37,514 nucleotides of DNA, taken from positions 1-37,514 of IMG/VR virus record IMGVR_UViG_3300042430_001700; one strand, written 5' to 3'. This stretch comes from a virus. Within the stretch, counting starts at the first letter, position 1; each line of letters starts with the position of its first letter. The position numbers and the translations under genes were made by a program. Under the pieces are notes generated by a model. The model had not been told where the DNA came from. It worked only from the letters and a program-made list of their open reading frames with translations, and searched no databases. This document shows, piece by piece, positions 8,018 through 15,845 of the stretch.

Positions 8018-9217
8018 TTATTTATTTTCACTTATACAAATTTTTATATCTTTTTTTCTTGTTAACACTGTTTTATATGATAGTCCAATTTTAATAGATA
8101 GCGCTTTTATTGTGAATTTACCATCTTTTTGTGTATTCCACTCTCCTGCTACCTTTAAAATTTTATCTGTATTCTTTTTACCCTCTTTTTTATTGTGTTC
8201 ACCCGATGCGATAGAACTCCTCTCTCTACCCGTTAATGTGTATATTGGGTTAAATGGGTATTTTTGTTCTTTATTCGCAAAAAGTGGTACATCAGCAGTT
8301 AACAATCTATTGCAAATACTTTGTAATTCCTCTGCATCCATGGGTTCAAAACATATATTGTTGTTAATGTGTTTAGCAAGTCCAAAAAATCTTTCTTTTT
8401 TTACTAATGGATTTAACGCTTTGATTGTTGATAGTATTCTAAAAACTGTATTATTTCTACTACCTAATGGTATTGTCTTAGGTATATATACACTTGTATA
8501 TTTTATAGGGTTTTCAGACATATCTAAAAATAAAACATCGTCTTTAAATAGTATGTTTTCTTTCATTTCATCAAGGTTGGACATCCTTAATTCCCCCTCG
8601 TAAAAGTGGTAATCGGTGTCCAACCTTTCTAAAAGCTTTTTATTTTCTCTTGTTACCACTTTTTTATCTTCTTTATTATCTACAAAAGAAGTATTAAATC
8701 TTGTAAAATTAGGGTTGTAGTAAGTGTCGTAATCATATCCAATAACATTTAATCTATCTCTTGATACAGCGGCTTTATCAGCTTTAATATCCAATACTTC
8801 ACAAATACTGTTAATTATACTTCTCATAGTTTTTAAATTAGTATTTAATTCACTATAATTATCTAATGCCACAATAATACCACTACCTATTCCTGATAGA
8901 GATTTCCAAGATGCGACAACAAAACTAAATTCAGAAAAATCAATATCTATTTTATAATCTACGTCAATATAGATAAAACCAGTAGATTTTTCTATCGTAT
9001 CTGTTTTTACATATTTATTGTGCTTATAATTTGGCACAAAGCAAGGAAGAGATTTTTTTATATCCTTGTACCGCTTTGATTCCTTGTCAAAAGTTCTAGC
9101 GTTATCTACAATTCTTTTGTGGACAATAGAAGGATTTTTTAAGTGGTGTATTAACTCTTCTAAAGATATGTTATCTACAACATTTCTGTTTTTAACATTT
9201 GTAATAATATTGAACAT
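8018..9217 (-). CDS. BT4734/VirE-N-like primase of the archaeo-eukaryotic primase superfamily
   Basis: A 399-residue protein that probably primes phage DNA replication. The N-terminal catalytic domain shows the family motifs: FIYIDVDYK (81-89) with the metal-binding DVD, SLSGIGSGIIV (106-116), and SRDRLNVIGYD (152-162), matching the R-bearing motif of BT4734-type (VirE N-terminal) primases. A helical region, GSRNNTVFRILSTIKALN and on to about 315, resembles the PriCT domain that follows such primases. The last 50 residues contain a helix-turn-helix-like stretch (FTIKALSIKIGLSYKTVLTRK). No helicase is fused to it, but an SF2 helicase is encoded downstream. A leader with an attenuator-like structure precedes the gene. 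A 208-residue plus-strand frame over it is a shadow. Confidence 0.8.
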   Translation of the reverse strand: MFNIITNVKNRNVVDNISLEELIHHLKNPSIVHKRIVDNARTFDKESKRYKDIKKSLPCFVPNYKHNKYVKTDTIEKSTGFIYIDVDYKIDIDFSEFSFVVASWKSLSGIGSGIIVALDNYSELNTNLKTMRSIINSICEVLDIKADKAAVSRDRLNVIGYDYDTYYNPNFTRFNTSFVDNKEDKKVVTRENKKLLERLDTDYHFYEGELRMSNLDEMKENILFKDDVLFLDMSENPIKYTSVYIPKTIPLGSRNNTVFRILSTIKALNPLVKKERFFGLAKHINNNICFEPMDAEELQSICNRLLTADVPLFANKEQKYPFNPIYTLTGRERSSIASGEHNKKEGKKNTDKILKVAGEWNTQKDGKFTIKALSIKIGLSYKTVLTRKKDIKICISENK

Positions 9218-9254
9218 AATTATTTAGTTTTATAAAATGCGAAACGCCATTAAA

Positions 9255-9289
9255 CAGAAAAAGACCTAGTATTGTAGAAGATAGGTCTT
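9255..9289 (-). terminator. intrinsic terminator in the leader of the primase operon
   Basis: On the minus strand AAGACCTA (9289-9282) pairs perfectly with TAGGTCTT (9268-9261) around a 13-nt loop, and five U residues complete the terminator (CUUUUUCUG). It lies 44 bases before the primase ATG, so termination here would silence the primase-helicase operon. The loop holds TCTTCTAC, which is complementary over eight bases to an upstream leader segment at 9345-9352. Confidence 0.7.
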
Positions 9290-9358
9290 AATTTCCGTAA
9301 AATGACGTTCACGTCTTTTATGTATTTTTTTAGTTTTATTATGGTCTTCTACTTCCAC
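9266..9358 (-). CDS. candidate 30-residue leader peptide
   Basis: A GTG-started frame (MEVEDHNKTKKIHKRRER... ending YLLQY) runs through the leader. Its stop codon, TAG at 9266-9268, is the first three bases of the 3' arm of the terminator, so a translating ribosome would melt that hairpin. The peptide is very basic. The start is non-ATG and the length is short, so it may be chance. Its position over both the proposed antiterminator and the terminator is what argues for it. Confidence 0.3.
   Translation of the reverse strand: MEVEDHNKTKKIHKRRERHFTEIKTYLLQY
9299..9319. other. small hairpin within the primase leader
   Basis: AAAA-T-GACG, loop TTCA, CGTC-TTTT: an eight-pair stem with one bulge, A/T-rich at its base and thus terminator-like in both orientations. 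It lies between the proposed antiterminator strand and the main terminator. Confidence 0.4.
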
Positions 9359-9403
9359 TTTTTAAACTCCGATAAATTTATTTTTTAACGTGCAGTACTA
9401 ATG

Positions 9404-9411
9404 CAAAGGTA
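9404..9411 (-). promoter_or_regulatory. possible -7 box for the primase leader transcript
   Basis: Minus-strand TACCTTTG matches TAnnTTTG and lies between the end of the split tRNA and the leader ORF. No TTG is present at the -33 distance, so activity would need confirmation or an activator. Confidence 0.35.
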
Positions 9412-9435: not shown

Positions 9436-9895
9436 GATTGAGACAGGATTCGAACCTGTAAATTCTAAATTAAACCTCTTCTTCTTTTGTATTCATAATG
9501 TTTTTTACAAAGAGACTTACCATGTTGGAAGTTTTCACAACCATCTTCAATACATATTATAGGAGGGTTTTTACCTCTTCTCCCATAAGGATTTCCTGGT
9601 GGGGGTAAATTATTTGGCACAACATCTCCTTCCTTTCTATGATGAGATAAATGACAAGACCTACATAAAACAGTAAGGTTTTCAACATCATTGTAATTTT
9701 CATCATTTGGTTTCATTTTAATTACATGGTGAACACAAAGGTTTTCTTTAGAGCCACAATTAGTACATTTGTTGTCGTATTTTGATAATACAAAATTTCC
9801 TATGTCTTTTTTCAATCTGTGAAAAAATTTCATAAATACTATTTTTTTATAAATATACTAAATTATGTCGGAACTACCAATTCCGCCACTCAACC
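9436..9895 (-). pseudogene. tRNA gene (Leu-like 5' half) interrupted by an HNH nuclease gene
   Basis: The 5' part (9895 downward) has the acceptor strand GGTTGAG and a D arm containing GGCGGAATTGGTAG, typical of tRNA-Leu. The 3' part (9436 to about 9465) has a complete T arm, ACAGG-TTCGAAT-CCTGT, and the acceptor strand CTCAATC. The two acceptor strands, about 450 bases apart, pair over all seven positions (one G-U). The insertion between them is almost entirely the HNH gene at 9465-9833. No anticodon stem can be rebuilt from the visible halves, and the D stem looks decayed, so the tRNA is probably inactive unless an unrecognised intron is spliced out. Confidence 0.6.
9465..9833 (-). CDS. HNH endonuclease inside a tRNA gene
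   Basis: A 122-residue nuclease. The HNH core has the McrA-type zinc layout: CTNC (23-26), CVHH with the catalytic His (33-36), N52, then CRSCH (57-61). After a proline/glycine linker there is a second finger (C94, C99, C109, H112) ending LCKKHYEYKRRR. It closely resembles the fingers of the larger homing endonuclease at 3990-4703 (LCELHYRRF). The stop codon lies within the 3' half of the split tRNA, so the gene fits tightly into that locus. It is probably a homing-type element that targets the tRNA gene. Confidence 0.85.
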   Translation of the reverse strand: MKFFHRLKKDIGNFVLSKYDNKCTNCGSKENLCVHHVIKMKPNDENYNDVENLTVLCRSCHLSHHRKEGDVVPNNLPPPGNPYGRRGKNPPIICIEDGCENFQHGKSLCKKHYEYKRRRGLI

Positions 9896-10132: not shown

Positions 10133-10390
10133 TTATACATATAAAACATCTTTAGGTAGTTCTTGTGATGGTTTAAATTTAATCATAGTAGCTAAAAACA
10201 TCTCAACGTACTTAGCCTGCTTTCTAATAGATATATCTTCCATAGAGAAGTTATACTCTTCAAACATTTTAAAAACTAAATTATCCCAAAAAACAGAATT
10301 TTCAACCAAATAGTTTCTGTTAATAACAACTTTAGATATGTTATCAAATAAGACTTCCTCGTACTCTGTTATACCTAATTTGTCTTGCAT
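10133..10390 (-). CDS. small protein of unknown function at the arm junction
   Basis: An 85-residue protein starting MQDKLGITEYEEVLFDN, helical, with no recognised motif. A TTG start 42 bases upstream would place translation before the likely transcription start, since the -7 promoter box lies at 10410-10417; the ATG is therefore chosen. Being first behind the divergent promoter, it may be an early gene or regulator, but nothing in the sequence shows DNA binding. Confidence 0.55.
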   Translation of the reverse strand: MQDKLGITEYEEVLFDNISKVVINRNYLVENSVFWDNLVFKMFEEYNFSMEDISIRKQAKYVEMFLATMIKFKPSQELPKDVLYV

Positions 10391-13211: not shown

Positions 13212-15845
13212 ATGGCAACTGAAAATGATTTTATAAAGTCTTTTATTAAAAAGAATAAAAATCAATTTTTAAAATATAAGAAATACTTGCAAGAGAATGA
13301 TTGGAGATATTTTCCAGAAAAAATAGATAAAAAACAATCGGACTCAAAAGTCGATGAATTCCAAGTCCAAAATGAATTAGTCTCTGCTATACTCAGCAGG
13401 TTAAAATACTTCGTTAAAAAAGCAGAATCAGATAACAATACAAAACCATTCAAAGATTTTGCAAAAGAAACTTTAAGTATAATTTCAATACATACAGAAA
13501 GGGCGGAGGACTATATATCTGCATCTAATTTATCTGACATAAAAGACCTCACTTTAAGGGCAAATGAAATACAGTTTCATAATACATTATTCAAATCCGT
13601 ATCCTCGATAGATGATACGGTTTCTGCGTTAAATATAAAAGAGGAATCAGCTGTTGTAGGTATAAATTTATTTTTAGATAAGCAAAAGGCTACTTTAGCT
13701 ATGCACAAAATCCTTTATGATATATATCCAGAAATAAAAAATAAAGTAGATGAACTTGGTATAGATTTCGATTCTCCACCCCCAAAAACTATACACTTAT
13801 TAAATAAAAACCCACCTCTTTGGAACAAAGACAAACATTATTGGGAACAGGATAAAGATACCTTACAATATTATGTAGACGAATATAAAAAAATAGAGGG
13901 TGGTATTATAATAGATGATTATTTTATAGACGGCTGGCTATATTTTCACTTCAATCACTTTGTAACAAACATACCAACTACTGTTGTAAGGAACGGAATA
14001 CCTGAAAATTTAGATGTAATAAAACCCCCTCCTCTCAGGGATAATGAAATCATCATCACAGAATACTTCAACAAGAGCAGAAGAGAAGGTTTGACAAGTC
14101 TTATTGCTGCTACAAGACGTGCCGCAAAAACTACAATGAACGCCTCAAGAATTGTTAGGGCACAACTTCTTTCAAAAAAGCAAATACTTTGCGCTGGAGG
14201 TTCCTCCGAAGATTTAGGTCACATTCATAACAATATGGATACTTGTCAATTGAATATGACACAAGCATTCAGATTGTATTTTCTATCACCAACAGAAGAT
14301 GGTAGAGGTAAAGTTTACGGAATAAAAACTAAAAGCAATAAGTCTATTGCTACATGCAATGTGTTCATTATAAACTTAGAAGGTGGTTCTAATAAGAAAA
14401 AACAAGAGTCTTTAGCTGGATTTACCCCAGATGAGTTTATATTGGATGAAGCAATGAAATTCCCCTTTAAAAAACAATTAGATGCCTTAGAACCAGCATT
14501 GTGGGGTAGTGGTATATTAAGGTGTTCGCAGATTATTACAGGAACAGGAGGTAACGACGAGCTTGCCTCAGATGCAATAAAAATGCTAAATAATCCAAAA
14601 GATAATAGAATTTGTCTAATGGATTGGGACATACTTGAAAGAGGTGTACCTAAAGAATTAATAACGTGGGAAAGAAAAGATTTTGGATTGTTCTTACCTA
14701 CACAAATGTCCGTAAAACACAAAAAAATAGAAGGTAATTTAGCAGATTACTTAGGTATAATTTCAGAAACGTTAAGTCAAATTCCATTACTTGTAACGGA
14801 TTGGGAAAATGCAAAAATAGCAGAGGATAAGGAAAGAGATTCTAAAATAGCAGACAGGCAAGCCTACGTTAGGCTCTTAGCGTACCACCCTTATGACCCA
14901 AGTGAAATCTTCTTATCAGGTAAGGAAAGCCCTTTTCCTATCGCCGAAACAAGAGCACACAGAGAATTTCTATTAGCTACAGGAAACTGGGACAGAAGAA
15001 GAGATTTATATAGAGATAGTAGTGGAATTATAAGAATAGACCTCTCCTCAAAAGATATTGTACAATACCCGCATTCTGGAGGAATTGTGGATGCACCAGC
15101 ATTAATATTTGAAGACCCGCCAAAAGAAAGACCAAGATACGGAACATACGTAGGAGCATTTGATGACTACGCATCAGAAGACAGCGAGACAGATTCTGTT
15201 GCTACATTCTATGTTATAAAAAATAAGATACTTGGAGACCCCTTCTCCGAGAAAATAGTGGCATCATTATCTTTTAGACCACAGAGACATCAAGAAGTTT
15301 ATGAAAAATGGCTTATGTTAATGGAGTTGTATTTTTTAGATGGGTGTGTATTTGGTGAAAATTTTAACTACAACATAAAAGACTTTTTAGATAGAAAGCA
15401 TTTATCGGATAAATACTTGGCACAAAGTTTAGATTTTACACAAAGTTTCAGTTTGCCTAATAACCTAAAAAGAAAAACAGGGTGGAGTCCAATGATTAAG
15501 AGACACCTTTTTAGTTTATTTGTAGACTACTGTAACGAAGAGTTTCAAGTTGAAAATGAAGAAGGAGATTTAATTACTTTAAAAGGTGTACAGAGAATTG
15601 ACGACATAGTTTTATTGGACGAAATTATGAAGTATAGTGAAAATGCCAACGTCGATAGAATAATATCTGCAATGGCTTGTGTTAGTTACATGCACTATCT
15701 GCAAAGTTCATACAGGTGGAAAACCAGAGATTATGAAAAAGAGAGAGACAGTGCTCCGCAAGTAAAAAAAGAAAGAAGGCAACTAAGTTTCTACAACACA
15801 ATAAGCAGAGTAAGCAGTTTTTATTCTATAAAAAACCGTCGTTAA
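13212..15845 (+). CDS. terL: terminase large subunit (packaging ATPase and nuclease)
   Basis: An 877-residue packaging motor protein. An unusually long N-terminal region (about 280 residues, helical) precedes the ATPase. The Walker A-like loop is ATRRAAKTT (about 299-307), an arginine-rich deviant form in which the usual glycine before Lys is Ala. Walker B with the catalytic Glu is FILDEAMK (about 408-415). A coupling motif TGTGG follows near 443. The C-terminal RNase H-like nuclease domain begins around GAFDDYASED (about 649), whose Asp residues fit the metal site. Typical TerL proteins have 450-750 residues, so this one is long. It precedes the portal gene in the usual order. Confidence 0.85.
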   Translation: MATENDFIKSFIKKNKNQFLKYKKYLQENDWRYFPEKIDKKQSDSKVDEFQVQNELVSAILSRLKYFVKKAESDNNTKPFKDFAKETLSIISIHTERAEDYISASNLSDIKDLTLRANEIQFHNTLFKSVSSIDDTVSALNIKEESAVVGINLFLDKQKATLAMHKILYDIYPEIKNKVDELGIDFDSPPPKTIHLLNKNPPLWNKDKHYWEQDKDTLQYYVDEYKKIEGGIIIDDYFIDGWLYFHFNHFVTNIPTTVVRNGIPENLDVIKPPPLRDNEIIITEYFNKSRREGLTSLIAATRRAAKTTMNASRIVRAQLLSKKQILCAGGSSEDLGHIHNNMDTCQLNMTQAFRLYFLSPTEDGRGKVYGIKTKSNKSIATCNVFIINLEGGSNKKKQESLAGFTPDEFILDEAMKFPFKKQLDALEPALWGSGILRCSQIITGTGGNDELASDAIKMLNNPKDNRICLMDWDILERGVPKELITWERKDFGLFLPTQMSVKHKKIEGNLADYLGIISETLSQIPLLVTDWENAKIAEDKERDSKIADRQAYVRLLAYHPYDPSEIFLSGKESPFPIAETRAHREFLLATGNWDRRRDLYRDSSGIIRIDLSSKDIVQYPHSGGIVDAPALIFEDPPKERPRYGTYVGAFDDYASEDSETDSVATFYVIKNKILGDPFSEKIVASLSFRPQRHQEVYEKWLMLMELYFLDGCVFGENFNYNIKDFLDRKHLSDKYLAQSLDFTQSFSLPNNLKRKTGWSPMIKRHLFSLFVDYCNEEFQVENEEGDLITLKGVQRIDDIVLLDEIMKYSENANVDRIISAMACVSYMHYLQSSYRWKTRDYEKERDSAPQVKKERRQLSFYNTISRVSSFYSIKNRR

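What the first reader, a model, noticed from the sequence alone, without database searches (positions are those of the whole stretch)
9255..9411. Attenuator-like leader controlling the primase-helicase operon
In order on the minus strand there are a TAnnTTTG box, a 30-codon GTG-started frame, and a strong terminator 44 nt before the primase start. The terminator loop (TCTTCTAC, 9281-9274) is perfectly complementary over 8 nt to an upstream leader segment (GTAGAAGA, 9352-9345), and that segment also continues as ACC, which could compete for the terminator's 3' arm. The stop codon of the leader frame lies in the terminator stem, so translation would open it. This looks like a translation- or RNA-controlled switch between replication gene expression and silence in a phage.
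Basis: partly seen in the sequence, partly recalled or inferred. Interest (0 to 1): 0.6.

Follow-up and report, generated by a model that had tools for sequence, protein, structure and literature searches.

The report
Phage leader RNA with kissing hairpins
Just before a replication gene this gut-type (crAss-like) phage carries a small RNA structure of two hairpins whose loops fit each other; relatives keep the fit while changing its letters, so it is real, it is absent from the RNA family library, and it is not the peptide-controlled switch first proposed.

Summary
The window is a fragment of a crAss-like phage. Its minus-strand leader (about 9376-9229) is a conserved RNA element: hairpin A (10-nt loop) and a long hairpin B (13-nt loop) whose loops are complementary over 8 nt. 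Taken alone the window's match is marginal (p about 0.03). I found 14 more elements in related viral contigs, mostly with a covariance model that knows nothing of the loop pairing. Every one keeps 7-9 bp (up to 11) of loop-loop complementarity with different letters (kissing helix 94% paired, 7 of 8 pairs changed on both sides, 0/500 shuffles). Thirteen of 13 loci fetched by the upstream gene carry it. The 30-codon frame and U-tract are not conserved, and hairpin B continues past the U-tract almost to the start codon. The element is gene-independent: primase, a winged-helix-like protein, a polymerase-like protein or a noncoding region may follow, and genomes recombine at it. Near-identical phages carry different, compensated loop pairs. 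No Rfam family matches. Most likely it is a 5'-leader RNA gate on replication-module expression; function is inferred.

The parts
9229..9376 (-). kissing-hairpin RNA element (whole conserved module)
   Evidence: models R1/R2 match 9229-9376 / 9229-9377; covariation
9332..9368 (-). hairpin A; 10-nt loop at 9354-9345
   Evidence: MFE; stem covaries, helices 1-2
9345..9352 (-). kissing strand K1, GTAGAAGA
   Evidence: covaries with K2, helix 3
9232..9321 (-). hairpin B, long hairpin with 13-nt loop; basal stem 9321-9316 / 9237-9232, then lower, middle and upper stems
   Evidence: MFE; helices 4-5 covary
9274..9281 (-). kissing strand K2, TCTTCTAC, first 8 nt of loop B (9281-9269)
9258..9262 (-). 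U5 tract after the upper stem of hairpin B; lies inside the longer stem and is not conserved in all members
9266..9358 (-).
9404..9411 (-). TACCTTTG box; no -33 TTG; doubtful promoter
8018..9217 (-). downstream gene: AEP-type primase-like protein (weak BT4734-like_N, PriCT_1)
   Evidence: PriCT_1 E 2e-4; relatives pass BT4734-like_N
10133..10390 (-). small gene that lies upstream of the element in the relatives
   Evidence: alignments A5 and A10; used to fetch 13 loci

Best explanation
A conserved structured RNA at the 5' start of the replication transcript of a group of crAss-like phages: a small hairpin A (10-nt loop) and a long hairpin B (13-14 nt loop) that pair loop to loop over 8-9 bp (shown by covariation). 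It most likely works as a cis-acting leader gate. Hairpin B buries the stretch up to the start codon of the next gene, and the loop-loop helix, which abuts the 5' arm of B directly, locks or sets that fold, so that expression of the replication module depends on whether the kissing pair is formed or displaced (inferred). The module is independent of the particular gene it precedes (shown), so the regulator is probably not that gene's protein (inferred). Whatever displaces the kiss is unknown.
For: Structure: unconstrained folds put K1 and K2 in the loops in most of the first five elements. Fifteen elements all have 7-9 bp (up to 11) cognate complementarity, while non-cognate loop pairs mostly have 4-6 (0/20,000 and 0/100,000 permutations). 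Pair counts on alignments made blind to the kiss: 86.7% of cells paired, 40 of 50 pairs with double changes, kissing helix 94.2% paired with 7/8 double changes, slid controls 41-53%. Context: 13/13 loci fetched by the upstream gene carry the element. Its 3' end lies a few to about 17 nt before the AUG of a replication-type gene in most members. Bacteroidota-type promoters lie 8-46 nt upstream in L007, L042, L008 and L020. Sense RNA folds better than its complement in 8 of 10. Gene independence: L086 and L188 share one loop allele but precede unrelated genes; 98%-identical primases in L107 and L020 have different elements.
Against: In L007, L181, L182, L042 and L008 the element is followed by another noncoding region, not an ORF, which fits a cis leader poorly unless it acts on transcription. 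No transcript data were available. The direction of regulation (on or off) is not determined. Alignments were fitted to the nested structure, which favours those helices (not the kissing helix).
Confidence: 0.5

Rival explanations
1. A stand-alone phage noncoding RNA that acts in trans or as a homodimer through intermolecular kissing (self-recognition, incompatibility or scaffold), and only happens to sit before replication genes.
For: Gene-independent; own promoter close by in four members; followed by a noncoding region in five contigs; loops diversify fast but always stay self-complementary, even between phages with 96-100% identical flanks (L007 vs L182).
Against: The 3' boundary falls next to start codons of replication genes in most members; hairpin B has no conserved terminator, so an independent 3' end is not evident.
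Confidence: 0.25
2. A replication-origin element: the structured strand or transcript serves as primer or as primase/initiator landing site.
For: Lies at the start of the replication module and next to the divergence point with the structural genes; genomes recombine exactly there.
Against: The same allele is kept in front of unrelated downstream genes (L086 vs L188); G-U pairs and better folding of the sense strand point to RNA (partly biased by construction).
Confidence: 0.1
3. Autogenous operator: the downstream replication protein binds the RNA knot and represses its own translation, as T4 gp32 does.
For: Position in the leader of a replication gene; known precedent (PMC3014915).
Against: Near-identical primases (98%) have different elements and one element allele precedes two unrelated proteins.
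Confidence: 0.08
4. Transcription attenuator with a 30-codon leader peptide.
For: The frame exists in the window; part of it is still readable in L087; U5-6 follows the upper stem in about half of the members.
Against: No conserved frame or start; U-tract not conserved; lower stem below the U-tract covaries.
Confidence: 0.03

Closest known systems
Pseudoknot-controlled rep leaders of I-complex/IncB/IncL-M plasmids (ColIb-P9 repZ; PMC10724649 and papers it cites)
   Same: Leader of a replication gene; a hairpin loop pairs with a second leader segment; loop sequence sets specificity through kissing.
   Different: Here the partner is upstream in a hairpin of its own, no conserved leader peptide is seen, no conserved antisense promoter was found, and the element precedes unrelated genes in phages.
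T4/T2/RB69 gene 32 autoregulatory pseudoknot (PMC3014915)
   Same: Phage replication gene with a pseudoknot in its 5' leader.
   Different: Compact H-type knot bound by the gene's own product; here long kissing hairpins that are not tied to one gene product.
GOLLD / ROOL ornate phage RNAs (PMC12286853)
   Same: Phage-encoded structured RNAs, often near tRNA genes, with covarying kissing loops.
   Different: Large multi-domain RNAs (many GOLLD members exceed 800 nt) that form cages; this is about 145 nt with two hairpins, and no Rfam match.

Membership tests
Leader-peptide transcription attenuator | Conserved short leader ORF overlapping the terminator region | tested here: not met
   frame absent or interrupted in nearly all of 13 aligned elements
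Leader-peptide transcription attenuator | Intrinsic terminator (stem followed directly by U-tract) conserved | tested here: not met
   U-tract missing in L007, L042, L182, L184; stem continues below it
Leader-peptide transcription attenuator | Termination depends on translation of the leader | not testable with these tools
   needs in vivo data
ColIb-P9-type pseudoknot rep leader | Loop of a leader hairpin pairs with another leader segment | tested here: met
   covarying loop-loop helix
ColIb-P9-type pseudoknot rep leader | Antisense RNA from the opposite strand against the hairpin loop | tested here: inconclusive
   no conserved antisense promoter of the TTG-TAnnTTTG type; other promoter types not covered
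ColIb-P9-type pseudoknot rep leader | Leader peptide whose translation opens the structure | tested here: not met
T4 gene 32-type autogenous operator | RNA co-evolves with, and is bound by, the downstream protein | tested here: not met
   RNA and downstream gene are exchanged independently; binding itself not testable here
Any Rfam 15 family (including GOLLD, ROOL) | Match at gathering score | tested here: not met
   window and related loci: only the two tRNAs in the window

The most novel reading that the evidence does not exclude
The two loops are a self-recognition code. Each phage lineage carries its own loop pair, new pairs arise by coupled changes, and kissing between RNAs of different phages (or failure of it) decides compatibility of replication modules in co-infected cells, an RNA-based phage counterpart of plasmid incompatibility. 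Near-identical phages (L007, L180, L182) already carry three different, each self-complementary, loop pairs.
Probability: 0.12. Interest if true: 0.85.

Novelty: new variant of a known kind. Interest (0 to 1): 0.62.

Why it matters
If true, crAss-like phages, an abundant phage group whose gene control is little studied, have an RNA element not in Rfam that sits at the entrance of their replication module. [quoted passage not shown] A covarying kissing-loop leader whose loops diversify fast, and which is independent of the gene behind it, would be a separate, directly testable case of RNA control (or RNA-based compatibility) in phage replication.

Tried and rejected
DNA and protein searches with the primase alone found no relatives; alignments of terminase, helicase, primase and the upstream gene were needed. 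Rfam, gathering and permissive: only chance hits. A loop-loop test on unconstrained folds alone was too strict: clear for window and L020, lost in others where loops form small local pairs. A generic motif scan over 5 Mb returned the elements among its best-folding hits but with much A/T-rich background. Model R2 in 149 Flavobacteriaceae-type genomes: no match, so not a common host RNA (that search uses strict filters). phi4:1, a relative by terminase, gave no match. Structures upstream of distant primase homologues in Sphingobacteria also show loop-loop complements but with a different order and shape; not claimed as the same element. Autogenous control by the primase was rejected because RNA and gene are exchanged independently.

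Full report
WHAT THE WINDOW IS. The record is a 37.5-kb linear fragment from IMG/VR. Its terminase (13212-15842) is closest to Cellulophaga phages phi17:2 and phi4:1 and to crAss-like phages. The finding lies on the minus strand between an HNH gene and a primase-like gene (8018-9217).

THE OBSERVATION. All letters are as reported. The leader folds much better than shuffles (z = -3.4). Two things were missed. The upstream complementary segment is itself the 10-nt loop of a hairpin (A, 9368-9332). The 'terminator' is only the upper third of a long hairpin (B, 9321-9232) whose stem resumes below the U-tract and ends about 15 nt before the primase ATG. On its own, an 8-nt complement to the loop within 100 nt has p = 0.033.

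RELATIVES. Searches with alignments of terminase, helicase and primase gave related viral contigs. Upstream of the divergent primases in L087, L107 and L020 (about 25-27% identity to the window's) and L043 (38%) lies the same two-hairpin layout with other loop letters: GTAGAAGA:TCTTCTAC (window), GTGGGAGA:TCTTCCAC (L087), GTTAGAGC:GCTCTAAC (L107), GCGAAGAT:ATCTTCGC (L020), GTAGGAGG:CCTCCTAC (L043). A covariance model of window, L087 and L107 with the nested hairpins only (R1) then found L007 (GTGATAAC:GTTATCAC) and L086 (GTGGAAAC:GTTTCCAC). A second model (R2) found L042 (ATGGAACC:GGTTCCAT) and, at weak scores but in the expected place, L043, L008 (GTGGAAATT:AATTTCCAC) and L006 (TTACAGC:GCTGTAA). 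L042 and L006 had already been seen by motif scan or by eye, so they are less independent.

A TEST WITHOUT THE RNA. The small gene upstream of the element was aligned (A10) and used to fetch loci. R2 found the element in all 13. Five carried elements not seen before: L180 CTAGGAATC:GATTCCTAG, L182 GTGATACT:AGTATCAC, L184 GTAGAAAG:CTTTCTAC, L186 GTAGCTGG:CCAGCTAC, L188 GTGGAAACC:GGTTTCCAC. That makes 15 elements, each with full loop complementarity (L086 and L188 share loop letters).

STATISTICS. Cognate loops pair over 7-9 nt (up to 11 when flanks are counted), non-cognate loops mostly over 4-6; 0 of 20,000 and 0 of 100,000 permutations reach the observed sum. On the R2 alignment A11, which knows nothing of the kiss, 86.7% of cells are paired (shuffled 64%, slid 41-53%). 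Forty of 50 pairs have changes on both sides. The kissing helix is 94.2% paired with 7 of 8 pairs doubly changed. The nested helices are favoured by the fitting; the kissing helix is not.

WHAT IT IS NOT. The 30-codon frame is not conserved. The U-tract is lost in several members while the lower stem is kept. Autogenous control by the primase is unlikely: primases 98% identical (L107, L020) carry different elements, and one loop allele precedes a winged-helix-like protein in L086 and a primase in L188. Downstream of other elements are a 389-aa protein with polymerase-A-like motifs read by eye (L184; no PHROG match) or a further noncoding region (L007, L181, L182, L042, L008). The name 'winged-helix-like' for the L086/L006/L180/L186 gene is a guess from its pattern; Pfam gave no match for the L086 and L006 proteins.

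A RECOMBINATION BOUNDARY WITH FAST LOOPS. L107 and L020 become 97.7% identical from inside the 3' arm of hairpin B onwards and are unlike before it. L007 and L180 are 95-100% identical over most of the stretch up to the element and unrelated after it. L007 and L182 are 96-100% identical on both sides, yet the element between is only 83-86% identical, with matched changes in both loops and in the upper stem.

HOW IT MIGHT WORK. Shown: structure, conservation, position, gene independence. Inferred: it is an RNA of the coding sense. Sense folds are more stable in 8 of 10, and TTG-TAnnTTTG promoters lie 8-46 nt upstream in four members. The 3' arm of hairpin B abuts the start codon in most members, so a cis gate on initiation, or on read-through, is the simplest role. 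K1 ends at stem A and K2 starts 0-1 nt after the 5' arm of B in most members, which would let the loop helix stack on B and lock it. The trigger is unknown. The main rival is a trans-acting or self-recognising RNA, favoured by the members without a following ORF and by the fast, coupled loop changes.

KNOWN RELATIVES. It works like pseudoknot-controlled plasmid rep leaders (PMC10724649) and sits like the T4 gene 32 knot (PMC3014915), but meets neither definition fully. GOLLD and ROOL share kissing loops and a phage setting (PMC12286853) but are far larger. No Rfam family matches. No paper in the searched library combined crAss, phage and kissing loop in a relevant way.

Noticed in passing
window 9895-9433, minus strand: A tRNA-Leu-like gene appears split by an HNH endonuclease ORF (9465-9833): 5' half GGTTGAGTGGCGGAATTGGTAG, 3' half ACAGGTTCGAATCCTGTCTCAATCCCA with matching acceptor stem. 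ARAGORN calls no tRNA here; L087 has an intact tRNA-Leu at the same place.
   Followed up: partly
L007 4803-4280, L042 and L008 (minus strand), also L181 and L182: A further conserved noncoding region of about 450 nt directly follows the kissing element where relatives have a replication gene; it starts with the hairpin AACATGGAGC...GCTCATGTT and has no Rfam match.
   Followed up: partly
L007 5090-4985, L042 5250-5165, L043 and L184 upstream of the element: Another conserved noncoding stretch between the upstream gene and the element (GTAGAT..GTGAGAGGGCGTA..ATCTACTG type), with its own TAnnTTTG-type promoter.
   Followed up: no
L103/L172, L104, L164, L167, about 20-130 nt before the primase homologue: Distant primase homologues in Mucilaginibacter genomes and phages have a long hairpin whose loop is complementary over 8-9 nt to a segment of a following hairpin (e.g. 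L104 ATCAAGTTT:AAACTTGAT); a possibly analogous design.
   Followed up: partly
window 10025-9900, minus strand: Repeated GGTTAAAATCTG..AACGGTCTT segments just before the split tRNA; function unknown.
   Followed up: no
L002 7130-6930, minus strand (phi17:2): Oversized tRNA-like genes with matching acceptor ends but enlarged middles, suggesting further interrupted tRNAs in this phage group.
   Followed up: no
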